Shown in pieces: positions 25,506 to 45,600 of a stretch of 64,000 nucleotides of DNA. Below the pieces are notes generated by a model. The model did no database searches. It saw nothing but the letters and a program-made list of their open reading frames with translations, and was not told the DNA's origin. The position numbers were made by a program, and so were the translations under genes. Position 1 is the stretch's first letter; every line of letters starts with the position of its first letter. This DNA comes from Lentzea sp. NEAU-D7 (GTDB lineage: Bacteria; Actinomycetota; Actinomycetes; Mycobacteriales; Pseudonocardiaceae), in NCBI RefSeq assembly GCF_026242055.1, contig NZ_JAPJDL010000001.1, forward strand, positions 186,001 to 250,000, in the 5' to 3' direction.

Positions 25506-25524
25506 TTCATCCGCCCGGGGTGAG
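25506..25524. promoter_or_regulatory. 19-nt island palindrome, copy a
   Basis: TTCATCCGCCCGGGGTGAG fits the island motif. It lies between the divergent cyclotransferase (66 nt to its start) and lipid-kinase-like gene (56 nt to its start). It is one of the less symmetrical copies. Confidence 0.55.
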
Positions 25525-25580
25525 GCCGCACGCGGAGGGTGCGGGCCAGGCTGGACGGACATTCCACATTGGAGGATGCC

Positions 25581-26876
25581 GTGACCCTTGTGACAGTGCC
25601 GCCGGAGCGACGACGACTGGCCAGACTCACCTTCCTGGCGGCGGGAGCGGCCGTGGCGGTAGTGCTGGTGGCGGCCGGAGTGCGTGCCGGCGCCGGGCTG
25701 GTGCTGATCGGCGCGGCGGGGACGGCGGTCGCACTGGTGGGTGCCTGGTGGTTCCTCGCACACCGCGGCCTCCTGCGGTGGCTCGCCGGAACGCTGGTGC
25801 TGCTCGCGCCGCTGGCCGTGGCCGTCCTGTACGTGCAGGCACGCCTGGCGTGGGTGGTCGTGGTGTGCGCCCTGCTGTGGGCGGTCGCCCTGGCCTGCGG
25901 ACGGCGCGCACTGGCCGCGGGTGCGCGCCGTCCGGCCGAGTCCGAGGTCCCCCCACCGCGGCGGCCGTACCTGATCATGAACCCGAGGTCCGGCGGCGGG
26001 AAGACCGGCCGCTTCGGCCTCCCGGAACTGGCCCGCGGGCTCGGCGCCGAGGTCTGCGTGCTCGACGGGTCGCAGAACGCCGCCGAACTCGCCCGGCAGG
26101 CCGTCGACGACGGCGCCGACCTGCTCGGCGTGGCCGGAGGTGACGGCACCCAGGCGATCGTCGCCGGCGTCGCGGCGGAATGCGGCGTACCGTTCATGGT
26201 CATCTCGGCGGGCACCCGCAACCACTTCGCCCTCGACCTGGGCCTGGACCGCGACGACCCCCGCCGCTGCCTCGACGCGCTCACCGACGGCGTCGAGGTG
26301 CGCGTGGACCTCTGCACGGCCGGAGACCGAGTCTTCGTCAACAACGCCTCGTTCGGCGCGTACGCCGAGGTCGTGCAGAGCCCCGCCTACCGCGACGGCA
26401 AGACGCGAACGGCGCTGAACCTGCTGCCCGGTCTCCTGGTCGGGCCACGGGCGGCGACGCTGTGCATGCGGGCGGGCGGGGACTGGCTGGCCGGCGCACA
26501 GGCGGTGCTGGTCAGCAACAACCCGTACGGCTCAAGCGACCTGGCGGGCCTGGGACGCAGGCCGCGGCTGGACAGCGGCGCCCTGGGCGTGCTCGCCGTG
26601 ACGGTGCGCAACGCGGCGGACGCCGCCGGCCTGCTGCGAGGCAGGCAGCGCTCCGACGCGGTGTACCTGCGGACCGCCACGGAGGTCGTCATCACGTCGG
26701 ACACGCTGTCGTTGCCCGTCGGTGTCGACGGTGAGGCGGTCACGATGCCGACCCCCGTGCGGTGCGAGGTGAGGCCGGGGGCGCTGCGGGTGCGGGTGCC
26801 GCGCCACCGGCCCGGTGTGCGGCCGCCCCGGCCGGAACTGAGCTGGAGGCGGTTGCGTGAGTTGGCCTTGTCCTAG
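25581..26876 (+). CDS. diacylglycerol kinase-family lipid kinase with N-terminal membrane domain
   Basis: A 431-residue protein. Residues 1-110 hold four hydrophobic segments. The catalytic domain follows: YLIMNPRSGGGKTGRF is the nucleotide-binding entry, VAGGDGTQAIVAGVA contains the GGDGT signature of DAGK/sphingosine-kinase/YegS enzymes, and GTRNHFALDLGL is the next conserved block. It phosphorylates a lipid, which one being unknown. The GTG at 25581 follows GGAGG by 5 nt. The last nine residues (RRLRELALS) are the first unit of the adjoining 24-bp repeat array, and the frame stays open for 966 nt after the TAG. Confidence 0.88.
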   Translation: MTLVTVPPERRRLARLTFLAAGAAVAVVLVAAGVRAGAGLVLIGAAGTAVALVGAWWFLAHRGLLRWLAGTLVLLAPLAVAVLYVQARLAWVVVVCALLWAVALACGRRALAAGARRPAESEVPPPRRPYLIMNPRSGGGKTGRFGLPELARGLGAEVCVLDGSQNAAELARQAVDDGADLLGVAGGDGTQAIVAGVAAECGVPFMVISAGTRNHFALDLGLDRDDPRRCLDALTDGVEVRVDLCTAGDRVFVNNASFGAYAEVVQSPAYRDGKTRTALNLLPGLLVGPRAATLCMRAGGDWLAGAQAVLVSNNPYGSSDLAGLGRRPRLDSGALGVLAVTVRNAADAAGLLRGRQRSDAVYLRTATEVVITSDTLSLPVGVDGEAVTMPTPVRCEVRPGALRVRVPRHRPGVRPPRPELSWRRLRELALS

Positions 26877-27860
26877 CGAGGCGAGTCGGCGCTGTCGCAG
26901 CGGCGCGAACCGGCCCTGGCTCAACGACGTGAGTCGGTTCAGTCGCAGCGACCCGGGCTGGACCCGTCCGAGCGGAGCGAGTCGGTGCAGTCCCAGCGGC
27001 ACGAACCGGCCCTGGCCCAACGACGTGAGTCGGCACAATCCCAGCGGCACGAGCTGACCCCGTCTGAGCGGCGCGAGTCGGTGCAGTCCCAGCGGCACCA
27101 ACCGGCCCTGGCCCAACGATGTGAGTCGGCTCAGTCCCAGCGACATGAGCTGACCCCGTCTGAGCGGCGCGAGCTGGCTCCATCTCTGCGGTGGGAGCCG
27201 GCTCTGTCTTGGCGACGCGGGCTGGGCCCGTTCCAACGACGCAGCGGCCAAGCCCCAAGGACACGAGTCGGCACTGTCCGAACGACCCGAGGCTGCCCTG
27301 TCCCCAATGACACGAGCTGCTCCCGTCCCAGCGGGGCAAACCCGCCCTGTCCCCACGACACGAACTCGCCCCGCCCCAACGGCACAAGTTGGTCCCATCC
27401 CAACAACGCGCGCCCACCCGTTCCAGCAACGCGAGCCGACCCCGTCCCAAAGGCACGAGCCGAACCCGGTCCCACGACACGAGCCCGCTCGTCCAACCAC
27501 ACGCGCGAAGCCCCTCCACGACACAAGCCGGCCCGGCCTGACAGCGCGGGCCGGCCCTGCGACCCGGAGCCCCGCCCGCCCCAACGGCGCAAGCTGACCA
27601 ACCCCCACGGTGCGAGCCCGGCCCAGCCCAGCAACGCGAGCCGACCCCTCCCAACAACGCGAGCCCGACCTACCCCACGACACCCGCCGGACCCGCCCAA
27701 CAACGCGAGCCCGGCCCGCCCCAACGACACGAGCCGGCCCGCCCCAACAACGCGAGCCCCGCCCGCCCCAACAACGCGAGCCGGCCCGCCCTCACGGCAC
27801 GGGCCAAGCCCATGCCGCCAAGGCGAGCCGGCCCTCTCCTAACGGTGCCGGGCCACTCGC
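26851..27860 (+). repeat. array of about forty 23-24-bp tandem repeats
   Basis: Units follow the loose consensus AGCGRCRCGAGYCGGCCCNGTCCC. The first dozen are regular 24-mers; examples start at 26875, 26899, 26923, 26947 and 26971. Later units become C-rich, vary by a base, and decay in the middle (about 27240-27600) before becoming regular again to 27800. The first unit is the 3' end of the lipid-kinase gene. In that same frame the array encodes octapeptides such as QRREPALA and QRRESVQS as far as 27842. The opposite strand is also largely open. No protein function can be assigned. Confidence 0.85.
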
Positions 27861-27904
27861 CGGGCTACCCGGCGTGACCTGAACATCCCCGGAGCCGAAG
27901 TCGT

Positions 27905-27935
27905 CCGCCGCACCGTGCGTCGTGCGGTGCGGCGG
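27905..27935 (-). terminator. terminator-like hairpin after the DUF6325 gene
   Basis: An 11-bp perfect stem CCGCCGCACCG/CGGTGCGGCGG with a 9-nt loop, 34 nt beyond the stop of the minus-strand DUF6325 gene and between it and the repeat array. Two copies of a 17-nt direct repeat (GGCGTGAYCYGAACATC) flank it at 27871 and 27943. Confidence 0.55.
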
Positions 27936-27968
27936 GCCACGCGGCGTGATCCGAACATCTCTGCCTCC

Positions 27969-28517
27969 TCATGGCGTCGAGCCTGCTGTCTCCAGGTCGT
28001 GCAGTGCCTGGGCCTCTTCCGCGTTCACCAGGCCGAGCGCGACCAGGTCCAGGGGGCTGATAAAGCCGTCGGAGACGCGGTAGCCCTTGGCGCGGGCGAC
28101 GGCGTCTCGTAGCGGCACGGCCCAGTGGTGCTCGATGAGCAGCAGGGCCGCCGCGCTGTCGTTGGGGATCTCGGCCAGCACGTCCCACGCGTCCGCGTCG
28201 CTGAACGGGTGGACGCCTCCCTTCTCCGCCGCCGACTCGGCTCCCCGGACCGCGCCTGCCAGCGCGCCCTCCTCCCCCGCGGCGCCGAGGCCGATCAGCG
28301 CGCCGATCTTGCTGCCCAGCTCGACCGCCTCTCCGGGCGTCAGGTTGCTCAGGTGTTCCACGGCGACGGCGCCCTGCGGGTCCTTGTGGACGGCGAGAGC
28401 GTCGATCACGCGGACGGTGTCCGTCTTGCGCAGCTTCTCCAGTTCGGCGACCACCTCACCGCGGAAGTCCGGGTGGGTGAAGCCGAGCACGATCAGTTGA
28501 ATCGGCCCGATGGCCAT
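27969..28517 (-). CDS. DUF6325/DUF1269-like stress protein
   Basis: A 182-residue soluble protein beginning MAIGPIQLIVLGFTHPDFRGEV, with a central Gly/Ala-rich segment (SKIGALIGLGAAGEEGALAGAV) and a later conserved patch IPNDSAAALLLIEHHWAVPLRDAV. This is the layout of DUF1269/DUF6325 proteins, often next to universal stress proteins and of unknown function. AAGGAGGGG precedes the ATG. A 19-nt palindrome lies 60 nt upstream. Confidence 0.72.
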   Translation of the reverse strand: MAIGPIQLIVLGFTHPDFRGEVVAELEKLRKTDTVRVIDALAVHKDPQGAVAVEHLSNLTPGEAVELGSKIGALIGLGAAGEEGALAGAVRGAESAAEKGGVHPFSDADAWDVLAEIPNDSAAALLLIEHHWAVPLRDAVARAKGYRVSDGFISPLDLVALGLVNAEEAQALHDLETAGSTP

Positions 28518-28576
28518 ACGACCCCTCCTTGTCTCGATCAGTCGTCCCATCGTCACGGCGCGCGGATCCCGGTCAC

Positions 28577-28595
28577 CTCATCCGGCGCGGGTGGA
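28577..28595. promoter_or_regulatory. 19-nt island palindrome, copy b
   Basis: CTCATCCGGCGCGGGTGGA, read on the minus strand as TCCACCCGCGCCGGATGAG. It lies 60 nt before the DUF6325 start and overlaps the stop codon of the gene upstream, so it can drive DUF6325 separately from the MFS operon. Confidence 0.55.
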
Positions 28596-29918
28596 ACGCC
28601 AGGCGAGGGCGGTCACCAGCAGCTCGTAGACCACGAGCAGCACCACGATCGCCAGCAGGGCGGTCCAGGACGAGATGAGCAGCGCGAGCAGGACCGCCAC
28701 GGCGACGCCGCCCACGCGCACGGCGTCGAGGTGGCGTGCGGTCCAGCTCGGGCCGTGCTCGGCGAGTGCCCGCCCGCCCGTCACGGCAGCGCGGCGGATC
28801 GCACGCCAGGCCGCGACGGTCCGGGCGCGCAGCCACGTCGGTCCTCGGCCGGGCCCGAGCAGGTACATCAGCAGGGCCAGCAGCGCGCCGGTCCAGATCA
28901 TCTGCCAGCCGCGTGTGCGCAGCTGGCTGAAGACCGCCGTCACGACGTCCGCGGCGCCGTCGCGGTAAAGCCCTTCCGGCACGTTCTGGAGGATCTGCTG
29001 CCGGACCGCGCGCAGCGCCACCGTGATCGCCACTGCGGCCACGACCAGCCACAGGCCGAGCTGCAGCAGCGTGCGGCGGCGGCCTGGCGAGACGAGCAGT
29101 GCGACCCCGAGCAGCACAAGGGTGCCGAGCACGAACAGGACGAGACCTCGCTTGGCCGTCACCACGGCCTGCTGAGCCGCCCACAGCTGCCCGGAGTCGT
29201 AGACGGTGAACTGCGCGAAGTTCTCCGGCAGCGTGACGCCGAGCGAGTCCTGCACCCGGACGCGCAGATCCGCGGGGATCTCGCCGCTGCTGAGGTCCGG
29301 CAGCGAGAGCTGCTTGCCGAACAGGGTGGGCAGCTGCGCGCTGAGCGTCCGGAGCACCTCGTTGACCAACGGAAGCAGGTCGACCTCGACGCGGTCGGAC
29401 TGGACGGCGACGACGTCGCTGTCTCCCTCGACGATGGCGAGTGCGCGGACGTGGGCACGGCGGTTGAGCTCGGTCCAGACGCGCTGGAACTGGTCGCTGC
29501 CCAGCACTTTCGCGGCCGTCGCGCGCACCGGGGCGTGCAGCTGGTTCGCCAGTGGGCCGGCGACGAACGCGGCCTGTTCGGGCAGCACGGCGCGCAGCCG
29601 CTGTTCGACGTCGACGGCCTCGAAGAGCTTGACCGTCGCGAAGTCCGCCACCGCCGCGGCGACCTCCGGGTCCTTGGGCAGGGGCGCGACCGTGGCGACC
29701 CATCGGTCGGTGTCGAGCGCGGTGCGCGCGCTCCAGATGCCCACGACGCTCATCACGAGCGCGAACGCCGTGACCGCGGTCAGGACGGCGGCACCGGTCC
29801 TGCGCAACGTCATCACCGTCGCCGCGCGCCGCTGCCGCCGGTCGAGCCGCGCCTGCAGCGCCTGCACCTCGGCCCGCAGGCGGGGCAGTTCGCCGAGGTC
29901 GTTCGTCATCCCGGTCAT
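28578..29918 (-). CDS. integral membrane protein of unknown function
   Basis: A 446-residue protein. A short N-terminal helix (LPRLRAEVQALQARLDRRQRR) precedes a membrane segment at about 40-60. A large extracytoplasmic domain of about 200 residues follows, then three or four C-terminal segments (GLVLFVLGTLVLLGVALLV and others). The extracytoplasmic part has a regular helical pattern and no cysteine pair. I know similar proteins in actinomycetes only as hypothetical. Its ATG overlaps the MFS stop as ATGA, so it is probably a partner or accessory of that exporter. Confidence 0.7.
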   Translation of the reverse strand: MTGMTNDLGELPRLRAEVQALQARLDRRQRRAATVMTLRRTGAAVLTAVTAFALVMSVVGIWSARTALDTDRWVATVAPLPKDPEVAAAVADFATVKLFEAVDVEQRLRAVLPEQAAFVAGPLANQLHAPVRATAAKVLGSDQFQRVWTELNRRAHVRALAIVEGDSDVVAVQSDRVEVDLLPLVNEVLRTLSAQLPTLFGKQLSLPDLSSGEIPADLRVRVQDSLGVTLPENFAQFTVYDSGQLWAAQQAVVTAKRGLVLFVLGTLVLLGVALLVSPGRRRTLLQLGLWLVVAAVAITVALRAVRQQILQNVPEGLYRDGAADVVTAVFSQLRTRGWQMIWTGALLALLMYLLGPGRGPTWLRARTVAAWRAIRRAAVTGGRALAEHGPSWTARHLDAVRVGGVAVAVLLALLISSWTALLAIVVLLVVYELLVTALAWRSTRAG

Positions 29919-31294
29919 CGCGCCGCGCTCGCCGTCGTCCGCGGCAGGAAGAACGCCACCGCCATCCCGCCGAGCGCGATCAGCGCCAGCACGACCATTG
30001 CCAACGCGTACGCGCGTTCGGGTGTCCGGGTGATGCCGGCGACGAGGATGGTGCCCGCGATCGCGGCGCCGAGCGAGGACCCGAGGTTGGACACGCTGCG
30101 GGACAGGCCGGAGATCTCCCCCTGCAACGCGTCGGGGAAGCTCGACTGCACGACGTTCACCGAAGGGGTCAGCATGGCGCCGATGCCGAGCCCGATCAGG
30201 AAGAGGCCGGGCAGGAAGGTCCACACCTGCGGTGAGAGCGCGAGCAACGCCAGGAAGAGCGCGATGCCCGTGACGGTGACGGCGAAGCCGGTCAGCACGA
30301 GGCTGCGCTGGGCGTGCCGCCGCGCGAGGCGCTCGGCCGACAGCGACGCGAGCAGCACGCCCGCCGTCGCCGCTGTGAGGATCAGGCCCGTCTCGATCGC
30401 GTTGTAGCCGCGCACGACCTGCAGGTACGCCGAGACCACGAACGAGATGCCCATGAGCACGAGCCACTGCAGGTTCTGCGTGACCAGGCCGAGGTTCGAG
30501 GTGCGGCTGCGGAACAGCGCGGTCGACAGCAACGGTTCGACGCCCGCGCGTTCCTTGGCGCGCACCGAGTGGAAGAACCACACGAGCGTCAGGACCCCGG
30601 CGGCGAGGAGCCCCACCATCAGCCAGAGGTTGTTGTCCGCGGCGAGCACGCCCGACACGATCAGGACGAGTCCCGCCGACGACAGCACCGCGCCGCGGAC
30701 GTCGAACGGGCGGGCAGGGTCCGGGGGCCGCGGATCCCGGACGTACTTGCGGCTCAGCACGAGGATCACCACGACCACCAGCGCCTGGAACAGGAAGGCC
30801 ACCCTCCAGCTGAGCGCCGTCGTGATGAACCCGCCGATCAGCGGCCCGGTGGCGGCACCGATGCCCGCCATGCCGTTGATGGCGCCGAACGCGCGGGCCC
30901 GCGCGGTGACACCGGCGAACAGCATCGTCGCGAGGATGTAGACGGGCGGGATCAGCAGCGCCGTCCCGACTCCCTCGAGGATCGAGTTGCCCAGGATGAG
31001 AACGGGCAGGTTCGGCGAGAACGCGCTCAGCACGGCACCGACGCCGTAGACGGCGAGACCGGCGCTGAGACATCTCTTGCGGCCGTAGCGGTCGGTCAGC
31101 TTGCCGCCGGGGATCATCAGCGCCGCCATGACGAGCAGGAAGATCGTGATCGCGAGCTGGACGCCCTGGACGGTGGTGCCCAGGTCCTGACCTATGTCGT
31201 TGATCATCACGTTCATGTTGGAGCCGGCGAAGCTGCAGATGAACTGGGCGAGGGCAAGGGGGACGAGCACTCTGCGCAAGGCGTTGGAGTCCAC
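29915..31294 (-). CDS. MFS transporter, DHA2-like
   Basis: About 459 residues with 12-14 membrane segments. GGKLTDRYGRKRC is the MFS loop 2-3 motif, and GMAGIGAATGPLIGGFI is motif C, characteristic of antiporters of the drug:proton DHA2 group. It probably exports a small toxic or signalling compound. I place the start at the GTG at 31294, which follows GGAGTC. A GTG at 31438 would add 48 Pro/Ala/Arg-rich residues and leave no room for a promoter. Two 19-nt palindromes lie between it and the divergent DUF2252 gene. Confidence 0.85.
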   Translation of the reverse strand: MDSNALRRVLVPLALAQFICSFAGSNMNVMINDIGQDLGTTVQGVQLAITIFLLVMAALMIPGGKLTDRYGRKRCLSAGLAVYGVGAVLSAFSPNLPVLILGNSILEGVGTALLIPPVYILATMLFAGVTARARAFGAINGMAGIGAATGPLIGGFITTALSWRVAFLFQALVVVVILVLSRKYVRDPRPPDPARPFDVRGAVLSSAGLVLIVSGVLAADNNLWLMVGLLAAGVLTLVWFFHSVRAKERAGVEPLLSTALFRSRTSNLGLVTQNLQWLVLMGISFVVSAYLQVVRGYNAIETGLILTAATAGVLLASLSAERLARRHAQRSLVLTGFAVTVTGIALFLALLALSPQVWTFLPGLFLIGLGIGAMLTPSVNVVQSSFPDALQGEISGLSRSVSNLGSSLGAAIAGTILVAGITRTPERAYALAMVVLALIALGGMAVAFFLPRTTASAAR

Positions 31295-31327
31295 CCACGC
31301 AGACTCCAGCGGCCGCGTCCGGGCCGC

Positions 31328-31379
31328 TTCACGCGCCGGGGATGAGGCACCGCGCCGGTACTCGCCCGCGCCGGGTGGT
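31328..31379. promoter_or_regulatory. two 19-nt island palindromes, copies c1 and c2
   Basis: TTCACGCGCCGGGGATGAG (31328-31346) and CTCGCCCGCGCCGGGTGGT (31361-31379). The second is 66 nt from the proposed MFS start and 73 nt from the DUF2252 start, matching the spacing seen elsewhere in the island. Confidence 0.55.
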
Positions 31380-31452: not shown

Positions 31453-32850
31453 ATGACCGGTCCAGTGGCCGCGAGGACCGCCAAGGGTCTCACCGCCCGC
31501 AAGGACGTGCCGCTCGAAGCGCACGGGCAGCCACCGCAGGACGGCGACCGGTTCGACCCGGTGAAGGTGCTGGCCGCGCAGGACGACGCGCGGGTGCCGG
31601 AGCTGGTGCCCATCCGGTACGGCCGGATGCTGGCCTCGCCGTTCGCGTTCTTCCGCGGCGCGGCGGCGGTGATGGCGGGCGACCTCGCCTCGACTCCGTG
31701 CTCCGGCCTGACCTGCCAGCTCAGCGGGGACGCGCACATCGGCAACTTCGGGGTCTTCGCCTCCCCGGAGCGGCGGCTCGTGTTCGACCTCAACGACTTC
31801 GACGAGACGCTGCCCGGTCCGTGGGAGTGGGACGTCAAGCGCCTCGCGGCCAGCCTGGCCGTCGCCGGACGCCAGAACGGGTTGGGGCGCAAGGCGAGGA
31901 TGAACGTCGTGCGCGCCGCCGCCGGTCGGTACCGCACGGCGATGGCCCGCTTCGCGGAGCAGGGCGATCTCGCGGTGTGGTACACCCACGCCAGCGCGGA
32001 GGACGTGAAGAGCCTCCTCAAAGCGCACGCGGACAAGGCCAGGCAACAGCGTTTCGCGCGCGAGCAGGCGAAGGCACGTGCACGGGACAGCCTGCAGGCC
32101 TACCGCAAGCTGACCTCCGTCATCGGCGGGCGCCGCCGCATCAACGCCGACCCGCCTCTGCTCGTGCCGGTCGGTCACCTGATGCCCGACACGGAACGCG
32201 AGGACCTGGAGTTCCTCGTGCAGGACCTGCTCGCGGGCTACGCCGCCAGCCTGTCCCCCGACCGGCGCCACCTGCTGAGCGGGTTCCGGTTCGTCGACAT
32301 GGCGCGCAAGGTCGTCGGCGTCGGCAGCGTCGGGACCCGGTGCTGGATCGTGCTGCTGCACGGACGCGACGAGGACGATCCGTTGCTGCTGCAGGTGAAG
32401 GAGGCGTCGCGGTCGGTCCTCGCGGACCACCTGCCCGGCCGGCCGCGCGCACGCCACGGCAGCGAGGGCGAGCGCGTCGTGACCGGGCAGCGGCTCATGC
32501 AGGCCGCCGGAGACATCTTCCTCGGCTGGGAGACCGCGGAGGGCATCGACGGGCTCACCCGGGACTTCTACGTCCGGCAGCTGCGCGACTGGAAGGGCTC
32601 TGCCTCGATCGAGACCATGGACGAGGCAGGCCTGCGGCTGTACGGCGCGCTGTGCGGGTGGACGCTGGCCCGAGCGCACGCGCGCACCGGTGACCGGATC
32701 GCGATGGCCGCGTACCTCTCCGACGGCAAGGCCTTCGACGTCGCGCTCGCCGAGTTCGCCGAGAGCTACGCGGACCGCAACGAACAGGACTACCGGCTCC
32801 TGGCCGAGGCGGCGCGGACCGGCCGCGTTCCCGTCCAGAGTGGACTGTGA
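31453..32850 (+). CDS. DUF2252 protein
   Basis: A 465-residue soluble protein. VPIRYGRMLASPFAFFRGAAAVMAGDLA, CQLSGDAHIGNFGVF and LVFDLNDFDETLPGPWEWDVKRLAAS are the hallmarks of DUF2252. The last two resemble the catalytic HxDxxxxN and metal-binding D regions of aminoglycoside-phosphotransferase-like kinases (SGDAHIGN, DLNDFDE). A kinase-like activity on an unknown substrate is plausible but unproven. GGGAGG precedes the ATG by 6 nt. The next gene, a glutamine amidotransferase, starts 22 nt later and is probably co-transcribed. Confidence 0.88.
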   Translation: MTGPVAARTAKGLTARKDVPLEAHGQPPQDGDRFDPVKVLAAQDDARVPELVPIRYGRMLASPFAFFRGAAAVMAGDLASTPCSGLTCQLSGDAHIGNFGVFASPERRLVFDLNDFDETLPGPWEWDVKRLAASLAVAGRQNGLGRKARMNVVRAAAGRYRTAMARFAEQGDLAVWYTHASAEDVKSLLKAHADKARQQRFAREQAKARARDSLQAYRKLTSVIGGRRRINADPPLLVPVGHLMPDTEREDLEFLVQDLLAGYAASLSPDRRHLLSGFRFVDMARKVVGVGSVGTRCWIVLLHGRDEDDPLLLQVKEASRSVLADHLPGRPRARHGSEGERVVTGQRLMQAAGDIFLGWETAEGIDGLTRDFYVRQLRDWKGSASIETMDEAGLRLYGALCGWTLARAHARTGDRIAMAAYLSDGKAFDVALAEFAESYADRNEQDYRLLAEAARTGRVPVQSGL

Positions 32851-33710: not shown

Positions 33711-33729
33711 TTCGCCCGCCACGGGTGAT
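33711..33729. promoter_or_regulatory. 19-nt island palindrome, copy d
   Basis: TTCGCCCGCCACGGGTGAT, 64 nt before the universal stress protein start. The central CCCG...CGGG arms are intact. Confidence 0.6.
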
Positions 33730-33793
33730 GCGGCGGGGACAGCCCGCCCGGAGGGTTGTGCCGCACGTCCCAGGACGAAGGAGAGGAACCACG

Positions 33794-35584: not shown

Positions 35585-35603
35585 ACCACCCGCGCCGGGT
35601 GAC
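35585..35603. promoter_or_regulatory. 19-nt island palindrome, copy e
   Basis: ACCACCCGCGCCGGGTGAC, one of the best copies. It is almost equidistant from the divergent patatin (68 nt) and GH63-like (65 nt) starts. Confidence 0.65.
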
Positions 35604-35668: not shown

Positions 35669-38274
<2,606 letters not shown>

Positions 38275-38278
<4 letters not shown>

Positions 38279-39723
38279 GCGGATGGCCGGACAAGCCCGT
38301 CATCTACGAGGTCAACACAGCGGTGTGGCTGGGCGAGCTCTCCCGGGCCGCCGGACGGCCCGTCACGCTCGCCGACGTGCCCGCCGCGGCCTGGCAGGCC
38401 GTGACACCGGCCGGCGTCGACGCGGTGTGGCTCATGGGCGTCTGGGAGCGCAGCGTGACGGGGCTGGCGCTCGCCAACGCGCGGACCGGGTTGCGGGCCT
38501 CGTTCCACGCCGCGCTCCCGGACCTGCGGCCGCAGGACGTGAGCGGGTCGCCCTACTGCGTGCGGCGCTACGTCGTGGCCGAGGAGTTCGGCGGCGACGA
38601 GGCGCTCGCGAAGGCACGGGCGGAGCTCGCGTCGCGCGGGGTGCGGCTGGTGCTCGACCACGTGCCGAACCACGTGGCACCGGACCACCCGTGGGTGACC
38701 GGCCACCCGGAGCTCTTCGTCCGCGGCGAGGTGGACGACTACGCGGAGAACCCCGAGCACTGGCTCGCGATCGGCGAGCACATCTTCGCGCGCGGCAGGG
38801 ACCCGTACTTCCCGCCGTGGCCGGACGTCGTGCAGCTCGACGCCTTCTCCCCCGCGCTGCGCAGCGCGACGGTGAAGACGCTCGCCGGCATCGCGGCCCG
38901 CTGCGACGGCATCCGGTGCGACATGGCGATGCTGATGACCAACGACGTCTTCGCGCGCACCTGGGGCCGCGAGGCGCCGGAGCGCGAGTTCTGGCCCGAG
39001 GTCATCGGCGCCCTGCGCGAGCGGCACGCGGACACCGTGCTCATCGCCGAGGCATACTGGGACATGGAGTGGACGTTGCAGCAGCAGGGTTTCGCCTTCT
39101 GCTACGACAAACGCCTCTACGACCGGCTCGTCTCGCGCGACGTGGAAGCGGTGCGCGCGCACCTGCGCGCGGATCCCGACTACCAGGCGGGACTGGTGCG
39201 GTTCCTGGAGAACCAGGACGAGCCGCGGCTCGCCGCCACGCTCCCACCGGACGCCGCCAAGGCGGCCGCCGTCGTCGTCGCCACGCTGCCGGGCGCGACG
39301 CTGTGGCACGAGGGCCAGTTCGAGGGCAGGACGGTCCGGCCGCCGGTGTTCCTCGCCCGCCGCCCGCACGAATATCCCGACCACGACCTCGCCGTCTGGT
39401 ACCGGCACCTGCTCGCGGCGGTGCGCGACCACGGGCTCCGGCTCGGCGAGTGGTTCCTGCTCGACACCGAGGGCTGGCCGGACAACCAGTCGCACCGCTC
39501 GCTTCTCGCGTGGGAATGGGTCGAGGTCGGCGGGTGCCGGCACGTCGTCGTGGTCAACTTCTCCGACGCCCCCGCACAGGGCCGGGTCCCGCTCGACTGG
39601 GAGCCGCGGTGCTGGCGGTTCACCGACCTGCTCGGCGGCGAGGTCTTCGACCGCGACCTCACCGCCGAGGGGCTCTTCGTGTCACTGCCCGCGTGGGGTT
39701 TCCACGTGTTGTCGGCGATGTGA
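38275..39723 (+). CDS. GH13 alpha-amylase-family enzyme
   Basis: A 482-residue TIM-barrel enzyme. The four conserved regions are readable: I, LVLDHVPNHV; II, GIRCDMAMLM with the nucleophile Asp; III, LIAEAYWD with the acid/base Glu; and IV, ENQDEPR, where the usual NHD is replaced by NQD. There is no signal peptide, so it acts on cytoplasmic alpha-glucan, a disaccharide, or a sugar phosphate. The gene overlaps the GH63-like stop as ATGA and converges on the AI-2E-family gene with a 42-nt overlap. Confidence 0.88.
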
Positions 39724-40692
39724 CCGGGTCCGCGCGCGGAGCAGGGCGGCAGCCCAGCCCGCGCGCGGGTCCGCGTCGACCAGCAGCACCTTCACCAGCA
39801 CGGTCAGCGGCACCGCCAGCAGCGCGCCCAGCGGTCCGAGCACCCACGCCCAGAACGCCAGCGACAGGAACGTCGTGGTCGTCGACAGCCCGGCGGCGTC
39901 GCCGGTGTAGCGGGGTTGCACCAGTGACTGCACCACGAAGTTCAGCAGCCCGTACACGGCCAGCACCGCGAGTGCCTGGCGCGGCCCCTGCTGCAGCAGC
40001 GCGAGCGCGGCGGGCGGCAGCACCCCGAGCAGGAACCCGACGTTGGGGACGTAGTTGGTGACGAAGGACAACACGCCCCACAGCAGGGCGAGCGGAACGC
40101 CGATCACCGTGAGCGCCACCGTGTCGAGCACCGCCACCACCGCACCGAACACCGTCGTCACCAGCAGGTAGCGCCGGGTGCGGCGGGCGAACTCCCGCAA
40201 CGCCGCGGTCATGTGCGGCCGCTGCGCCGCGATCTCCGCCAGCCTGCTGTCGGTCCAGTGCACCTCGACGCCGAGGAAGAGCAGCAGCGCCAGCAGGAAC
40301 ACCAGGCTCGTGGTGAGCCCGGTGAGGTCGGTGAGCAGTCCCGCGAGCGAGGCGAGCACCTTGCCCCGGTCCAGTCCGGCGATCACGTGCTCCGCCTGCC
40401 GCACCAAGGGGTGGTCCGCGTACTCGGGCAACATGGCGGCGAGTCGCACGGCCGACACCACCACCGTCACCGCGATCACCGCCAGCACCGCGTACACGAG
40501 CACCACGACGGCCGTGGTCGCGAGCCACGACGGCGCGCCGCGGCCGCGCAGCCACCGGTGCGCGGGGCTGATCGCGATCACGATCAGCCCCGCCAGCACG
40601 GTGGGCGCCACCAGCCACGCGACCGCCTTCACACCGGCGACCACGACCACCGCCGACGCGGCGCCGACCAGAATCGTCAACGCACGGGGCAT
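39682..40692 (-). CDS. AI-2E family transporter
   Basis: A 336-residue membrane protein with about eight segments. LLWGVLSFVTNYVPNVGFLLGVLPPAALALL and the C-terminal AFWAWVLGPLGALLAVPLTVLVKVLLVD are the conserved blocks of the AI-2E/UPF0118 (YdiK/PerM) family. Members export signalling molecules or act as sodium/proton antiporters; the substrate here is unknown. It starts in a TGATG overlap with the upstream DUF7144 gene, so they form one operon. Confidence 0.88.
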   Translation of the reverse strand: MPRALTILVGAASAVVVVAGVKAVAWLVAPTVLAGLIVIAISPAHRWLRGRGAPSWLATTAVVVLVYAVLAVIAVTVVVSAVRLAAMLPEYADHPLVRQAEHVIAGLDRGKVLASLAGLLTDLTGLTTSLVFLLALLLFLGVEVHWTDSRLAEIAAQRPHMTAALREFARRTRRYLLVTTVFGAVVAVLDTVALTVIGVPLALLWGVLSFVTNYVPNVGFLLGVLPPAALALLQQGPRQALAVLAVYGLLNFVVQSLVQPRYTGDAAGLSTTTTFLSLAFWAWVLGPLGALLAVPLTVLVKVLLVDADPRAGWAAALLRARTRSHRRQHVETPRGQ

Positions 40693-41096
40693 CAACGGTG
40701 TGACGACTCGAGCGTTGCCGCCGCCTCGTTGCCGTGCACCACGACGGCCCAGATCACCACCACGCACAGGGTGATGACGATCGTGGACCACAGCGGGTGC
40801 ACGGAGACGAATGCCAGTTGTGCCACCGCGTTCACCACGGCGAGAACCACCGTGACCACCCTGGCCCACGCCGCTCCGGAGAGCAGAGCGGCACCTGCGA
40901 GCGCCACCAGCACGCCGAGCAGCAGGGTGATCCAGCCCCAGGTGGTGAGGTCGAAGACGATCACCTGCTCGCCGTTGGCGACGTAGTACTCGCCGCGGAA
41001 CAACCCGACGAGTCCCTCGATGGCGTTGAACGCCCCCATGACGATCATCATGATGCCCGCGAACCAGATCCAGCCCAGCCAGCCTGTGTCCTGCAT
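40692..41096 (-). CDS. DUF7144-family small membrane protein
   Basis: A 134-residue protein with four membrane segments. It opens MQDTGWLGWIWFAGIMMIVMGAFNAIEGLVGLF and contains VIVFDLTTWGWITLLLGVL, the typical pattern of the actinobacterial DUF7144 family, of unknown function and often near universal stress genes. GGAGG lies 5 nt before the ATG. A 19-nt palindrome lies 65 nt upstream, shared with the divergent GH15 gene. Confidence 0.8.
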   Translation of the reverse strand: MQDTGWLGWIWFAGIMMIVMGAFNAIEGLVGLFRGEYYVANGEQVIVFDLTTWGWITLLLGVLVALAGAALLSGAAWARVVTVVLAVVNAVAQLAFVSVHPLWSTIVITLCVVVIWAVVVHGNEAAATLESSHR

Positions 41097-41161
41097 CGTG
41101 CCTCCGTTGTCTCGCGAAGCGTTGGTCGGGCCCACCGTGCCCCGGAGCCGGCGCGTGGATC

Positions 41162-41180
41162 TTCACCCGCCGCGTGTGAG
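41162..41180. promoter_or_regulatory. 19-nt island palindrome, copy f
   Basis: TTCACCCGCCGCGTGTGAG, 66 nt from the GH15 start on one side and 65 nt from the DUF7144 start on the other, which argues for one shared operator. Confidence 0.65.
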
Positions 41181-41246
41181 TACCTGGGCACGTGTCCGCT
41201 CAAGCGGGTGAAGACCAGGGCCGTTCGCGAGCCGAGTCTCGTCACC

Positions 41247-43070
41247 ATGACCACTCCCCCGTACGCGCCGATCGCCGACCACGGACTGATCGGCGACCTC
41301 CAGACCACCGCGCTGGTGTCCACCGACGGCACCGTGGACTGGTTCTGCTGCCCCCGCTTCGACTCGCCCTCGCTGTTCGCCTCGCTGCTGGACCGCAAGC
41401 GCGGCGGGTTCTGCCGCATCCGCCCCGCCGGGTTCACCGGCGGGGGCAAGCAGCTGTACTTCCCGGACACCGCGGTGCTGATCACCCGGTTCATGACCGA
41501 GGAGGGCACCGGTGAGGTCGTCGACTTCATGCCGCCGCTGCCGGACGAGGGCCCGTCCGAACGGCACCGGCTCGTGCGACTGGTGCGCTGCGTCCGCGGG
41601 CGGATCACGTTCGAGCTCGACGTCGCCCCGCGGTTCGACTACGGCCGCCGGGCACACCGCGCGCACCTCACCGACGACGGCGTGGTCTTCGCGTGCGGCC
41701 AGTTCGGCGTGGTGCTGCACGCCGTGCGCGAACCGGGAGACGCCCGGCTGGTGTCCGGGCAGATCACCGACACCGGTGACCTGCGCGCGACGATCAGCCT
41801 GGAGGAGGGCCAGACCCGCGGCATCGTGCTGGAGTCCGGTGTGGACGGTCCGCCGCGCGCGGTCCCCTCGGCCGAGGCGCAGGCGCTGTTCGAGAGCACC
41901 GTGCGGTTCTGGCACGACTGGCTCGCCCGCGGCACCTACCGGGGACGGTGGCGCGAGGCGGTCGACCGCTCGGCCATCACCCTGAAGCTGCTCACCTACG
42001 CGCCGACCGGGGCGATCGTCGCCGCCCCGACCGCGGGACTGCCCGAACAGCTCGGGGGTGAGCGCAACTGGGACTACCGCTACACCTGGATCAGGGACGC
42101 CTCGTTCGCCGTCGGCTCGTTGCTGCGGCTCGGTTTCACCGACGAGGCGGCGGCGTTCGGCGGCTGGCTCGCCGAACGGTTCGTGGAGGGTGAGCCGCTG
42201 CGGGTGATGTACGCGGTCGACGGGTCGGCCGACCTCACCGAACACGTGCTCGACCACTGGGAGGGCCATCGGGCGTCGTCGCCCGTGCGGGTGGGCAACG
42301 ACGCGGCCGGGCAGCTGCAGCTCGACATCTACGGCGAGCTGCTGGACAGCGTGTACGCCGCCCACCTGCGCGGCGTGCGCATCGGGCACCGCGGCTGGCA
42401 CGCGGTGGTCGAGCTGCTGGACTGGCTCGCGGAGAACTGGAACCAGCCGGAGGAGGGGATCTGGGAGACGCGGGCCGGGCGGGCGGACTTCACCTACGGG
42501 CGGGTGATGAGCTGGGTCGCGTTCGACCGGGCGATCCGCATCGCCGAGAGCGAGGGAAAACCCGCGCCGCTGGGGCGGTGGCGCTCCCAGCGCGACCGGA
42601 TCTACGGCCAGGTGTGGGAGCAGGGCTGGGATCACCGCACCGGCGCGTTCGTGCAGCGGTACGGCTCGCAGGTCCTCGACGCGTCGTTGCTGCGGCTGGC
42701 GCAGGTGGGGTTCGTCGCGCCGCGCGACCCGGTCTGGCTGGACGCGCTCGACGCGATGGAGTCGCTGGTCAGCGACAGTCTCGTGCGGCGTTACGACACC
42801 GACGCGGCACCCGACGGGCTGCGCGGCTCCGAGGGCTCGTTCTCCTTGTGCACCTTCAACTACGTGACCGCGCTGACGTTGTCCGGTCAGGCCGGCAGGG
42901 CGCGGCTGGTGTTCGAGAAGATGCTGACCTACGGCAACCACGTCGGGCTCTACGCCGAGGAGATCGCGGTGACCGGGGAACAGCTGGGCAACTTCCCGCA
43001 GGCGTTCACCCACCTGGCCCTCATCGAGGCCGCGGTCACCCTCGACGAGCAGCTCACTCGCGACGGGTGA
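41247..43070 (+). CDS. GH15 glucoamylase/trehalase-like enzyme
   Basis: A 607-residue cytoplasmic enzyme. An N-terminal beta domain starts IADHGLIGDLQTTALVSTDGTVDWFCCPRFDSP. The (alpha/alpha)6 barrel follows with GERNWDYRYTWIRDASFAV. The likely acid Glu is in QPEEGIWETR and the base Glu in GLYAEEIAV. Mycobacterial and streptomycete relatives include the GH15 trehalases, so trehalose or a short alpha-glucan is a reasonable substrate. With the GH63 and GH13 genes it makes three alpha-glycosidases under the same island motif. Confidence 0.9.
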   Translation: MTTPPYAPIADHGLIGDLQTTALVSTDGTVDWFCCPRFDSPSLFASLLDRKRGGFCRIRPAGFTGGGKQLYFPDTAVLITRFMTEEGTGEVVDFMPPLPDEGPSERHRLVRLVRCVRGRITFELDVAPRFDYGRRAHRAHLTDDGVVFACGQFGVVLHAVREPGDARLVSGQITDTGDLRATISLEEGQTRGIVLESGVDGPPRAVPSAEAQALFESTVRFWHDWLARGTYRGRWREAVDRSAITLKLLTYAPTGAIVAAPTAGLPEQLGGERNWDYRYTWIRDASFAVGSLLRLGFTDEAAAFGGWLAERFVEGEPLRVMYAVDGSADLTEHVLDHWEGHRASSPVRVGNDAAGQLQLDIYGELLDSVYAAHLRGVRIGHRGWHAVVELLDWLAENWNQPEEGIWETRAGRADFTYGRVMSWVAFDRAIRIAESEGKPAPLGRWRSQRDRIYGQVWEQGWDHRTGAFVQRYGSQVLDASLLRLAQVGFVAPRDPVWLDALDAMESLVSDSLVRRYDTDAAPDGLRGSEGSFSLCTFNYVTALTLSGQAGRARLVFEKMLTYGNHVGLYAEEIAVTGEQLGNFPQAFTHLALIEAAVTLDEQLTRDG

Positions 43071-43071
43071 G
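43053..43071. promoter_or_regulatory. 19-nt island palindrome, copy h
   Basis: CTCACTCGCGACGGGTGAG has good symmetry and overlaps the last codons of the GH15 gene. It is only 34 nt before the DUF1269 start, about 30 nt less than the usual spacing, as expected if that mRNA has no leader. Confidence 0.45.
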
Positions 43072-43105
43072 GACGCGGCGGCCCGTGTCTTCCAGAGTGA
43101 TCGGC

Positions 43106-43591
43106 ATGGCGACTTTGACCGTGTGGAAGTTCGACACGACCGACGGGGCGCACAGCGCGCTGCAGGAGTTGACGAGGCTGCAGGACCAGCAGCTGATCGT
43201 CGTTCGCGACGCGGCCTACGTGTACTGGGAGCCGGACGCGAAACGGCCGAAGACCAAGGAGCTCGGCAAGCTCACCGGTGCGGGAGCGCTCGGTGGTGGC
43301 TTCTGGGGGCTGCTGTTCGGGCTGATCTTCTTCGTGCCCCTGCTGGGCGCGGCGATCGGAGCCGGTGTCGGCGCGCTGGCGGGATCGATGTCCCGCGCGG
43401 GCATCGACGACGACTTCATCGAGGAGGTCCGGTCCACCGTCACACCCGGCACGTCCGCGTTGTTCGTGATGTCCGATCACGCCGTCGTCGACCGGGTGGT
43501 GGACAGGTTCAAGCAGACCGGCGCCACCCTGCTGACCACCAACCTCACGACCGAACAGGAGGACCTGCTGCGGGAGACGTTCGCGTCCTGA
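43106..43591 (+). CDS. DUF1269 protein
   Basis: A 161-residue protein opening MATLTVWKFDTTDGAHSALQEL. It has a long glycine-rich hydrophobic stretch (GALGGGFWGLLFGLIFFVPLLGAAIGAGVGALAG) and a C-terminal half with the typical TPGTSALFVMSD. This is the DUF1269 family, probably membrane-associated and of unknown function. No clear ribosome site is seen before the ATG, which fits a leaderless transcript. Confidence 0.82.
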   Translation: MATLTVWKFDTTDGAHSALQELTRLQDQQLIVVRDAAYVYWEPDAKRPKTKELGKLTGAGALGGGFWGLLFGLIFFVPLLGAAIGAGVGALAGSMSRAGIDDDFIEEVRSTVTPGTSALFVMSDHAVVDRVVDRFKQTGATLLTTNLTTEQEDLLRETFAS

Positions 43592-43835: not shown

Positions 43836-44505
43836 TCACCGCACCGGATCGGCCACCCGGACCTGCGCGGCCGCCTCTCCCAGCAGGGAGTGCACGACCC
43901 GCAGCACGTCCGCGACGTGGTCGCGGTGCTCGGTGATCACATGGGCCCGCCGGGTCGCCTCCCGCACCAGGCTCTCGGCCCGCCGGCGTGCGGTCTCCTC
44001 CATCAGCCGCACGTCCTCGCAGGTCTTCTTGCGCCGCAACGCCAGTGCCAGCTCGAAGTCCTCGGTGAGCTCGGCCCGCCTCCCCCTCCCGCAGGATCCG
44101 CGCCATCCGCGCACGGGTCCCCGCGAGCAGCTCCCGGTGCTCGGCGTGCGTGCGGCGGGCGGACTCCCACGCGTGGTCCTCGATCGCGGTGGCCCGGTCG
44201 GTGATCTCAGCCGCCTGGGCGAGCGTGCTCTCCACCAGGTGCCGCAGCCGTTCACCGACCGCGTACGGGGACAGCGGCACGGCGCACAGCCGATCGAGCC
44301 GCTCCCGCAGCTCGCGGTTGTCCTCCCGTTCGTGCTCCAGGTGCCGGGCGAGCGCCTCCGCCCTGGCCTCCGCCGCGTCGCGGTCCGTGGTGAGAGCCTC
44401 GATGTCGCGCTCCGCCTCGTGCACGTAGTGCCACACCTGGTCGCGCCGGAAGCCCAGCCACGCCACGTCGAACCCGGTGCGCAACGGCACCAGCTCCGCG
44501 GTCAC
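43836..44505 (-). pseudogene. DivIVA-like coiled-coil protein with a +1 frameshift
   Basis: From the GTG at 44505 one frame reads GFDVAWLGFRRDQVWHYV, then a long charged coiled coil to about MARILREGE. After 44076-44090 the protein continues in another frame as AELTEDFELALALRRKKTCEDV and ends at 43836. The whole span is 670 nt, one more than a multiple of three, so a single extra base restores a protein of about 222 residues. The opening resembles DivIVA/Scy-type polar-growth proteins. It is coupled by GTGA to the baeRF gene. True mutation or sequencing error at the C5 run 44082-44086. Confidence 0.75.
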
Positions 44506-45518
44506 GGCCGCACCAGGGTCAGCGGCACGCGGCACAGCGCGCCGATGCCGTCCTCGGGAGCCTGGCGGGTGCCCGCGCTGACCACGTGCACCCGCGTGCC
44601 GCTCAGCAACGCCGCGCGCACCGCCACGTCCGCGAGCAGCCCGCAGCGGTGGCGGGCCCCCGAGGACCGGGCGGGGGCCACGTCGGTCGGCGCGAGGCCG
44701 TACCACGCGGTCGCGGTGACGTCCTCCGGCTGGCCGACGAACAACTCGTCCACCCGGCCGTCCGCCAGGGCGCGGAGGGTGTCGTCCACTCCCTCCACCC
44801 CCAGCCGGCGGACCCTGCCGCGGTCGTGGAAGTCCTCCAGCACGCACGAGGTCCACGTGCGGGCCGCCGCGCGCACCTCGTCCTCGACCCGGCTCGGGCT
44901 CAGGTCGGTGCCGGCCCAGCGCACCGTGGTGTTGCGCCGCACGGGAGCCGGCAGCGATGCCCACAGCGCGGCCACCACCTCGTCCTCCCCCGCCACGACC
45001 AGCACCCTGACGTCCTCGCGAACCAGCGTCTCCGCCACCGCCGCGGCCGCGGACCGCACCCCTTCGCGCCAGTCCTCGGCGCGGTAGTGCAGCGACATCC
45101 GGCCTGCACCGGCCGTGCTCACCTCGGCGGCGTCACGTCCGACGGCGACGACCACGCACGGCGGCCGTTCCTGCACCCACGCGAGGAGCGGGAGCACGTG
45201 CGCCGGCGAGCTGAACCACGCCAGGTCCAGATGGCGCAGTCCCGGCGCGTGGAAGACGCGTGGAGGAACCTCGGAGCCTGCGAACGCCACGAGCGTTCCC
45301 GCAGACGGGTCAGCGGTGTGCGCCCGGTGCAGCGCGGCACCGATCGGACCGACCACCTCGTCGCCCGCTCCGTCACTGCGCAACTGGTCGGCGAGGCGGA
45401 CCCAGCGGGAGCGCCACGGACGCGACGGACTCGATCCCATGTAGACGGACGCGACCGGCCGTGCGGGCCGGACGACGTCGATCAGATCCCGCAGCGCGGG
45501 TCGGCAGGTCTTGGGCAC
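44502..45518 (-). CDS. baeRF-type (eRF1-like, Rv2629-like) protein
   Basis: A 338-residue soluble protein. The N-terminus DLIDVVRPARPVASVYMGSSPS and the middle RVLVVAGEDEVVAALWASLP with the following GTDLSPSRVEDEV fit the bacterial eRF1-like (baeRF) family that includes mycobacterial Rv2629, a DosR-regulated gene. It has been linked to ribosome-related roles in dormancy, but that is family inference. AGAGGAG precedes the GTG. The island palindrome lies 63 nt upstream. Confidence 0.78.
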   Translation of the reverse strand: MPKTCRPALRDLIDVVRPARPVASVYMGSSPSRPWRSRWVRLADQLRSDGAGDEVVGPIGAALHRAHTADPSAGTLVAFAGSEVPPRVFHAPGLRHLDLAWFSSPAHVLPLLAWVQERPPCVVVAVGRDAAEVSTAGAGRMSLHYRAEDWREGVRSAAAAVAETLVREDVRVLVVAGEDEVVAALWASLPAPVRRNTTVRWAGTDLSPSRVEDEVRAAARTWTSCVLEDFHDRGRVRRLGVEGVDDTLRALADGRVDELFVGQPEDVTATAWYGLAPTDVAPARSSGARHRCGLLADVAVRAALLSGTRVHVVSAGTRQAPEDGIGALCRVPLTLVRP

Positions 45519-45581
45519 AGCAGTGACTCCTCTTCCCGTCGTGGACTCGCCACAGATTCCGGGGAGGCGGTGTTCCGCTTC

Positions 45582-45600
45582 TTCACCCGGCGCGGATGAA
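45582..45600. promoter_or_regulatory. 19-nt island palindrome, copy g
   Basis: TTCACCCGGCGCGGATGAA, the copy with the best outer arms (TTCA/TGAA). It lies 63 nt before the baeRF start and about 97 nt before the small plus-strand gene at 45698. Confidence 0.65.

What the first reader, a model, noticed from the sequence alone, without database searches (positions are those of the whole stretch)
25506..45600. A 19-nt palindrome repeated about nine times marks a probable stress/dormancy regulon
Copies at 25506, 28577, 31328, 31361, 33711, 35585, 41162, 43053 and 45582 align without gaps to NTCACCCGCGCCGGGTGAN. Most lie 56-75 nt from a start codon, and several sit midway between divergent genes (35585: 65 and 68 nt; 41162: 66 and 65 nt). 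The controlled genes are a universal stress protein, DUF6325, DUF7144, DUF2252, baeRF, an AI-2E family transporter, patatin, and GH63/GH13 and GH15 enzymes. This recalls DosR/DevR or OsdR dormancy regulons, but the motif is not the mycobacterial DosR box (GGGACT core). I do not know it as a described operator.
Basis: partly seen in the sequence, partly recalled or inferred. Interest (0 to 1): 0.88.

Follow-up and report, generated by a model that had tools for sequence, protein, structure and literature searches.

The report
STAND-activator operator of a stress island
In the soil bacterium Lentzea and its relatives, a short repeated palindrome marks the promoters of a stress-gene island that is most likely switched on by a sensor-activator protein encoded at the island's edge.

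Summary
The repeated palindrome is real and is a promoter element. TCAYCCG-NNN-CGGRTGA sits at nine places in window 25506-45600. In the 9.3 Mb Lentzea genome, the palindrome (at most 1 mismatch) followed 21-22 nt later by a -10-like NANNNT hexamer occurs seven times, all in this 20 kb island. The same spacing holds in distant Lentzea (29 of 38 hand-listed site-gene pairs) and around homologous regulators elsewhere (21 of 29; 20 of 26 without one Lentzea locus). It puts the palindrome centre near -44, a class-II-like activator position.

The likeliest binder is the MalT-like LuxR/STAND (LAL) protein at 46103-48610. Its loci in 12 genomes of other genera, found by protein alone, hold 30 sites against 0.51 expected. 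It is the only protein family in all 14 loci compared.

DosR/OsdR is not supported: the published box differs. "Stress/dormancy" rests on gene content: USP, DUF1269, DUF7144 and a Balon/Rv2629-like ribosome-hibernation fold. Binding, expression and signal are untested. The paper searches I ran showed no description of this operator.

The parts
25506..25524 (.). Operator between the glutamine-cyclotransferase-like gene (-) and DAGK (+)
   Evidence: hexamer CAGGCT at 25547-25552 (+) toward DAGK
25474..25492 (-). Degenerate second site toward the cyclotransferase-like gene; likely hexamer GACGAT at 25447-25452 (-), likely leaderless GTG at 25439
   Evidence: read by eye; two scoring sites 32 nt apart at this promoter in G001 and G016
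28577..28595 (.). Operator of the DUF6325-like gene (-); overlaps the stop codon of the next gene
   Evidence: hexamer GACGAT 28549-28554 (-)
31328..31346 (.). Proximal operator of the MFS gene (-)
   Evidence: hexamer GAGTCT 31301-31306 (-); 33 nt from the next site
31361..31379 (.). Distal operator of MFS (-) and candidate operator of DUF2252 (+)
   Evidence: no NANNNT hexamer at 21-22 nt toward DUF2252
33711..33729 (.). Operator of the universal stress protein gene (+)
   Evidence: hexamer GAGGGT 33751-33756 (+); no scoring site before USP in G001 and G016
35585..35603 (.). Operator between patatin (-) and GH63 (+)
   Evidence: hexamer CAGCCT 35625-35630 (+); no hexamer at 21-22 nt toward patatin
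41162..41180 (.). Operator between DUF7144 (-) and GH15 (+)
   Evidence: hexamer CACGGT 41134-41139 (-)
41193..41211 (+). Half-preserved second site before GH15, with hexamer GAGTCT 41234-41239 and start ATG 41247
   Evidence: a full palindrome in register in G019
43053..43071 (.). Operator of DUF1269 (+), overlapping the GH15 stop codon
   Evidence: hexamer CAGAGT 43093-43098 (+), ATG 43106; kept in G015 and G018 where GH15 is not there
45582..45600 (.). Operator of the Balon/Rv2629-like gene (-)
   Evidence: hexamer GAATCT 45554-45559 (-); exact composite element
24609..25439 (-). Glutamine-cyclotransferase-like gene
   Evidence: Pfam Glu_cyclase_2; start chosen by eye
25581..26876 (+). Diacylglycerol-kinase-like gene
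   Evidence: Pfam DAGK_cat; start chosen by eye
27969..28517 (-). DUF6325-like gene
   Evidence: gene call; no Pfam hit
28578..29918 (-). Membrane protein gene, no family
29915..31294 (-). MFS transporter gene
   Evidence: Pfam MFS_1
31453..32850 (+). DUF2252 gene
   Evidence: Pfam
32873..33700 (+). EgtC-like glutamine amidotransferase gene
   Evidence: below the NCBIfam cut-off
33794..34687 (+). Universal stress protein gene
   Evidence: Pfam Usp
34677..35516 (-). Patatin-like gene
   Evidence: Pfam
35669..38278 (+). GH63-type gene
   Evidence: Pfam
38275..39723 (+). GH13-type alpha-amylase-like gene
   Evidence: Pfam Alpha-amylase
39682..40692 (-). AI-2E family transporter gene
   Evidence: Pfam
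40692..41096 (-). DUF7144 gene
   Evidence: Pfam PF23636
41247..43070 (+). GH15 gene
   Evidence: Pfam
43106..43591 (+). DUF1269 gene, apparently leaderless
   Evidence: Pfam
44502..45518 (-). Balon/Rv2629-like (baeRF) gene
   Evidence: NCBIfam 82.8 bits, cut-off 320; fold search
46103..48610 (+). LAL: MalT-like STAND ATPase with C-terminal GerE HTH; proposed activator

Best explanation
The palindrome (7-bp half-sites TCAYCCG/CGGRTGA around a 3-bp centre) is the operator of a local stress regulon. It is bound by the LuxR/GerE domains of the MalT-like STAND protein (LAL) encoded at 46103-48610. The palindrome centre lies near -44, with a weak -10 (mostly SANNNT) 21-22 nt beyond it, so bound LAL would recruit RNA polymerase as a class-II-type activator. 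One palindrome between divergent genes can drive both. A second site 31-33 nt away (three helical turns) at several promoters suggests cooperative binding of LAL multimers. An unknown inducer would be sensed through the helical-repeat region. Shown by computation: the element, its spacing, its conservation, and its linkage to this protein family. Inferred: binding, activation, start sites, inducer, and the role in stress or dormancy.
For: Spacing: NANNNT at 21-22 nt in 8 of 13 own pairs, 29 of 38 hand-listed pairs of the more distant Lentzea, 21 of 29 pairs around homologous regulators (20 of 26 without L105); other offsets average 0.6 hits in the last set, P 8.5e-23. Specificity: the composite element occurs 7 times in the own genome, all in the island; 0 of 16 other sites have it. 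In 24 Lentzea genomes the exact composite occurs 12 times with control 0: 10 in LAL islands, 1 before a relocated cyclotransferase homologue in G017. Regulator: LAL loci of 12 genomes from other genera, fetched by protein, hold 30 sites against 0.51 expected. Only LAL is in all 14 loci. LAL and the Balon-like gene are side by side in the same 13 of 24 Lentzea genomes. The HTH is invariant over residues 800-826 in 11 Lentzea LALs that are otherwise 58-86% identical to the window's. GH15 control: 10 of 10 island loci have a site, 20 of 20 other GH15 loci none (30 loci held out of 51 matches listed). Tandem sites 31-33 nt apart: 25 of 31 rows.
Against: No binding or expression data. DUF2252 and patatin have no hexamer at 21-22 nt; GH15 and the cyclotransferase fit only through a degenerate second site read by eye. 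USP has no scoring site in G001 and G016; G022 and G017 have none before DUF7144/GH15. Two of the 12 other-genus LAL loci (L112, L113) have no site with at most 1 mismatch. Within Lentzea the LAL, sites and genes come and go together, so co-occurrence there does not single out the LAL. LAL-less G002 has one exact composite, lying between two convergent gene ends. The LAL itself shows no hexamer at 21-22 nt from site 45582. Structure models are weak (pLDDT 63-64).
Confidence: 0.8

Rival explanations
1. A DosR/DevR/OsdR-type response regulator (NarL family) controls the island.
For: Gene content overlaps: USP and an Rv2629-like gene. DosR has a related GerE HTH (one search lists 1zlj and 1zlk).
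Against: The OsdR consensus AGGGCCGATCGGCCCT is different (PMC5069765, passages). No response regulator with a DNA-binding domain was seen among the ORFs I scanned in the island, and only the LAL is shared by all 14 loci.
Confidence: 0.05
2. Another DNA-binding protein encoded elsewhere in the genome binds the site, and the LAL is only a neighbour.
For: No protein has been shown to bind. In G017 a copy of the operator lies far from the LAL, so the binder acts in trans in any case.
Against: Sites cluster around the LAL in genomes of other genera although the other neighbours vary. The inverted 7-3-7 repeat suits a LuxR-type dimer (inference).
Confidence: 0.1
3. The palindrome is a repressor operator (TetR, MarR or GntR type).
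For: Such repressors use palindromes of this length (recalled).
Against: The site does not cover the -10 or the start but sits at a fixed distance upstream. No repressor gene is shared by the loci among the annotated clusters; not every cluster was annotated.
Confidence: 0.04
4. The copies are chance, a terminator hairpin or a mobile repeat.
For: TCA...TGA carries stop codons on both strands, and perfect copies do occur at convergent gene ends (C1:72799; G002).
Against: Shuffles and reversed controls, the fixed spacing to the hexamer, and a position upstream of the inferred start, so they would not be transcribed from that promoter.
Confidence: 0.01

Closest known systems
MalT and its maltose regulon (STAND/LAL activator)
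   Same: P-loop ATPase, helical repeats and C-terminal GerE HTH. MalT multimers bind their boxes cooperatively and recruit RNA polymerase (PMC4381067, passages). The weak model of the LAL has a STAND-TPR protein (6mfv) and a chain of the MalT-MalY entry (8bob) as its two best PDB matches.
   Different: MalT boxes are short GGA[TG]GA motifs (as quoted in PMC9628970), not a 7-3-7 palindrome. The protein is far below the MalT equivalog cut-off (230 against 537 bits). The targets are stress-type genes, although glucan enzymes are among them.
SCO6993 of Streptomyces coelicolor (LAL)
   Same: A LAL that binds palindromic sequences (PMC9628970, passages).
   Different: It represses antibiotic regulators, and no consensus could be derived for it; here one consensus serves many promoters.
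DosR/DevR and OsdR dormancy regulons
   Same: Local cluster of stress genes with USPs; Rv2629-like gene; palindromic operator of a GerE-type HTH.
   Different: Different operator, different regulator class.
Balon/Rv2629 ribosome hibernation factors
   Same: The predicted fold of 44502-45518 matches Msmeg1130, Rv2629 and Balon in the first five PDB hits. Balon genes often lie in stress operons (PMC10901736, passages).
   Different: Well below the NCBIfam cut-off (82.8 against 320 bits); no PDB hit by sequence at E up to 1.

Membership tests
DosR/OsdR dormancy regulon | Operator like AGGGCCGATCGGCCCT or the DevR box | tested here: not met
   Consensus here is TCAYCCG-NNN-CGGRTGA; OsdR box from PMC5069765
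DosR/OsdR dormancy regulon | NarL-type response regulator with cognate kinase tied to the sites | tested here: not met
   None among the island ORFs scanned; the shared regulator is a LAL. The rest of the genome was not searched for DosR
DosR/OsdR dormancy regulon | Induction by hypoxia | not testable with these tools
   no expression data
LAL / MalT-type STAND transcription factors | P-loop NTPase module | tested here: met
   Conserved Walker A and Walker B in A1; AAA families
LAL / MalT-type STAND transcription factors | C-terminal GerE HTH | tested here: met
   Pfam GerE 45.4 bits, cut-off 23.5
LAL / MalT-type STAND transcription factors | TPR-like sensor repeats | tested here: inconclusive
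   TPR_MalT 44.0 bits against cut-off 45; helical repeats in a weak model
LAL / MalT-type STAND transcription factors | Inducer- and ATP-dependent multimerisation | not testable with these tools
   only tandem site phasing points that way
Class-II-type activator promoter | Site at fixed distance just upstream of the -35 region | tested here: met
   hexamer 21-22 nt from the palindrome end; start sites themselves not mapped
Balon/Rv2629 family | Sequence above family cut-off | tested here: not met
   82.8 bits against 320
Balon/Rv2629 family | Fold of Balon | tested here: met
   Top five Foldseek hits are Balon proteins, from a model of pLDDT 63

The most novel reading that the evidence does not exclude
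A STAND sensor-activator found across Pseudonocardiales and some neighbours runs its own dormancy-type regulon (ribosome-hibernation-like factor, stress proteins, glucan enzymes) through a distinct promoter class: one or two phased palindromes plus a weak -10, often with leaderless mRNA. It would be a counterpart to DosR that senses a molecule through an ATPase switch instead of a phosphorelay.
Probability: 0.45. Interest if true: 0.75.

Novelty: new member of a known kind. Interest (0 to 1): 0.62.

Why it matters
LAL/STAND regulators are numerous in actinomycetes, but few (to my knowledge) have a defined operator. Here the operator, its promoter geometry, the probable regulator and a target set come together with conservation across genera, so one EMSA and one knockout can test it. 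If right, it adds a regulator class to actinobacterial stress and dormancy control, links a Balon-like hibernation factor to a STAND switch, and gives a promoter signature for annotating such islands.

Tried and rejected
DosR/OsdR box: rejected after reading passages with the OsdR consensus.

Genome-wide dispersed regulon in the own genome: not supported. Of 16 sites with at most 1 mismatch outside the island, 11 are inside called genes and none has the hexamer at 21-22 nt. The perfect copies at C1:72799 and C18:117936 are inside or at the end of called genes.

Operator of the LAL itself: the sequence from site 45582 toward the LAL shows no hexamer at the right offset in the own genome, so I do not claim autoregulation.

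A test with orphaned GH15 orthologues in LAL-less Lentzea was not possible, because close orthologues were found only in island genomes. More distant GH15 loci served as negative control: 20 scanned, none with a site. That scan covers the 30 loci held out of 51 matches listed.

PDB sequence search with the Balon-like protein found nothing; the fold search did.

Papers: searches were searches, and the listings showed no description of this motif or of a LAL stress regulon. Searches returned no paper. One search listed 15 of 310 papers, 12 of 26, 8 of 2,708. I saw passages only of PMC5069765, PMC9628970, PMC10901736, PMC10427625 and PMC4381067. Subscription journals are mostly not in the library.

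Limits. Gene starts come from a small codon-usage caller of my own, with some starts re-chosen by eye. The matrix was trained on the nine window sites, so window scores are circular; the tests in other genomes are not. The Lentzea pairs were listed by hand from the sites. Left out were G023 and second sites such as G001 9427, G016 9506, G019 17174 and G004 21923, and promoters without a scoring site could not enter. G001 and G016 are close relatives of G000. L105 is the same locus as part of G023. In one search a P of 2.8e-23 used 18 background hits where 19 is right; one search gives 8.5e-23. Tandem rows count a pair twice when both sites are strong, and G023 and L105 repeat one pair.
Full report
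WHAT WAS CLAIMED AND WHAT IS THERE. The nine 19-mers are at the stated places. A 17-mer search with up to 3 mismatches gives 11 matches in the window against 1.58 expected from shuffles (maximum 4 in 100), covering 8 of the 9 sites. The window is contig C1:186001-250000 of a 9.3 Mb genome, G000. Same-genus genomes correspond to named Lentzea records, so the organism is a Lentzea (Pseudonocardiales). TCAYCCGNNNCGGRTGA with at most 1 mismatch occurs 23 times in the genome (reversed control 3); 7 of the 23 lie in the 20 kb island.

GENES. Pfam and NCBIfam on selected ORFs give, left to right: a glutamine-cyclotransferase-like gene, DAGK, a DUF6325-like gene (no Pfam hit), a membrane protein, MFS, DUF2252, an EgtC-like gene, USP, patatin, GH63, a GH13-type gene, AI-2E, DUF7144, GH15, DUF1269, a DivIVA-like gene, a baeRF/Rv2629-like gene, and a MalT-like LuxR regulator (LAL). 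A codon-usage gene caller puts the site centre 69-83 nt from a called start in eight site-gene pairs; sites 35585 and 41162 are midway between divergent starts to within 2 nt.

THE KEY REGULARITY. When the DNA from each palindrome toward its gene is lined up, a hexamer NANNNT (such as GACGAT, CACGGT, CACAGT, GAACCT, CAGCCT) recurs 21-22 nt after the 19-mer. Counts: own window 8 of 13 site-gene pairs; Lentzea other than G000, G001 and G016, 29 of 38 hand-listed pairs; loci around homologous regulators 21 of 29 (23 distinct sites), or 20 of 26 without the Lentzea locus L105. In the 29-pair set the other 30 offsets tested have 19 hits in all (P 8.5e-23). In several genes (DUF1269, GH15, MFS, and the Balon-like gene of distant Lentzea) the start codon follows 6-7 nt after the hexamer, as in leaderless transcripts. 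That places the predicted start and sets the palindrome centre near -44, where class-II activators sit. The hexamer begins with G or C in 54 of 58 cases, and by eye I saw no constant -35, as expected of an activator-dependent promoter. Exceptions in the window are DUF2252 and patatin. GH15 and the cyclotransferase fit only through degenerate second sites.

SPECIFICITY. None of the 16 other own sites with at most 1 mismatch has the hexamer at 21-22 nt. Palindrome (at most 1 mismatch) plus intact hexamer occurs seven times in the genome, all in the island (read from the lists: 231554, 211507, 214549, 227134; 219712, 221586, 229054). Across 24 Lentzea genomes the exact composite occurs 12 times with control 0. 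Ten are in LAL islands. One, in G017 (contig C33), lies upstream of a relocated cyclotransferase homologue (67% identical), with two sites 31 nt apart and hexamers on both sides. One, in LAL-less G002, lies between two convergent gene ends.

CONSERVATION. In the Lentzea islands, sites recur at orthologous promoters of proteins about 67-96% identical. Where GH15 is missing from its place (G015), its former neighbours DUF7144 and DUF1269 each keep a site. Where DUF1269 and DUF7144 lie back to back (G018), they share one palindrome with hexamers on both sides. Not all fit: USP lacks a scoring site in G001 and G016, G022 and G017 lack one before DUF7144/GH15, and the nine more distant regions lack the left half of the island. 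Sites scoring 13.5 or more lie outside gene interiors in 9 of 9 (own region), 18 of 18 (G001, G016), 25 of 26 (other Lentzea) and 35 of 39 (other genera); the reversed matrix gave 1 hit in all. Strong sites often have a partner 31-33 nt away (25 of 31 rows).

THE REGULATOR. The Balon-like gene and the LAL are neighbours in the same 13 of 24 Lentzea genomes (in G012 the LAL is in two pieces). Of the 11 others, G021 has a 178-residue C-terminal remnant. A profile scan of named genomes for the LAL alone gave 25 loci. For the 12 from other genera I compared sites in the locus with the total in that genome: 30 against 0.51 expected, 10 of 12 loci having at least one. In Speluncibacter 10 of 20 sites lie within 39 kb around the LAL, in Saccharothrix 5 of 21 within 9 kb. 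Clustering the genes of these 12 loci, L105 and the window shows only the LAL in all 14, then DUF7144 in 10 loci, DUF1269 in 9, AI-2E in 8, GH15 in 7. Of 19 genes next to sites in those loci that I scanned, 18 match the families DUF1269 (3), DUF7144 (3), GH15 (2), STAS (2), AI-2E, MFS, DUF6325, SulP, DUF202, DUF6069, an amino-acid permease and ANTAR (1 each), and one is SfLAP. GH15 as control: 10 of 10 island loci carry a site, 20 of 20 other GH15 loci carry none. The LAL HTH is invariant over residues 800-826 in 11 Lentzea proteins, which are 58-86% identical to the window's overall.

HOW IT PROBABLY WORKS. MalT is a STAND ATPase whose multimerisation allows cooperative binding to its boxes and recruitment of RNA polymerase (PMC4381067, passages; PMC10427625, passages). 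By analogy, an inducer bound by the helical-repeat region would open the LAL's ATPase; LAL multimers would then bind one or two palindromes and recruit polymerase to weak -10 elements. Binding, activation, start sites and inducer are inferred. The role is likely a stress or resting state: USP and DUF1269 are present, and the product of 44502-45518 has Balon proteins as its five best PDB fold matches (model pLDDT 63), though it is far below the sequence cut-off of the Rv2629 family. Rv2629 and Msmeg1130 inhibit translation in vitro and are activated in hypoxia (PMC10901736, passages).

The OsdR box is AGGGCCGATCGGCCCT (PMC5069765, passages). Ours differs, and I saw no DNA-binding response regulator among the island ORFs scanned. 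I did not search the rest of the genome for a DosR orthologue. The resemblance to DosR is in gene content.

NOVELTY. The paper searches listed no description of this motif or of a LAL stress regulon, within an open-access library and capped listings. LAL regulators, and palindromic sites of LuxR proteins, are known (SCO6993, PMC9628970, passages). I therefore call this a new regulon of a known kind, with an unusually clear operator and promoter grammar.

Noticed in passing
window about 43836-44500 (-): A DivIVA-like gene behind the Balon-like gene changes reading frame in the window (GC frame plot; 92-aa call), while G001 and G016 have a 235-aa open frame there: a frameshift or a sequencing error.
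   Followed up: partly
window 26877-27968: About 1.1 kb between DAGK and the DUF6325-like gene has no coding signal; the gap is about 0.35 kb in G001 and 0.11 kb in G016. Not examined for RNA.
   Followed up: no
L105 12498-13253, L107 3852-4604, L108 12502-13263, L110 13960-14697: A protein family recurs near the LAL in four loci; its member L107 3852-4604 has an ANTAR domain and an operator 72 nt upstream. It could be an RNA-binding partner of the regulon.
   Followed up: no
L114 10001-10525 (G021, Lentzea atacamensis): Only the C-terminal part of the LAL remains (79% identical), with changed residues in the otherwise invariant HTH; only two weak sites in the fetched stretch.
   Followed up: partly
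window 16249-20430 and 54757-56388: Two SpoIIE-phosphatase sensor proteins, one a very large GAF/HisKA/receiver/PAS/SpoIIE hybrid, flank the region; any link to the island is untested.
   Followed up: no
G000:C1:72799 and L169 4173 (G002): Perfect palindromes at the ends of convergent genes: TCA...TGA gives stop codons on both strands, a source of false operators.
   Followed up: yes
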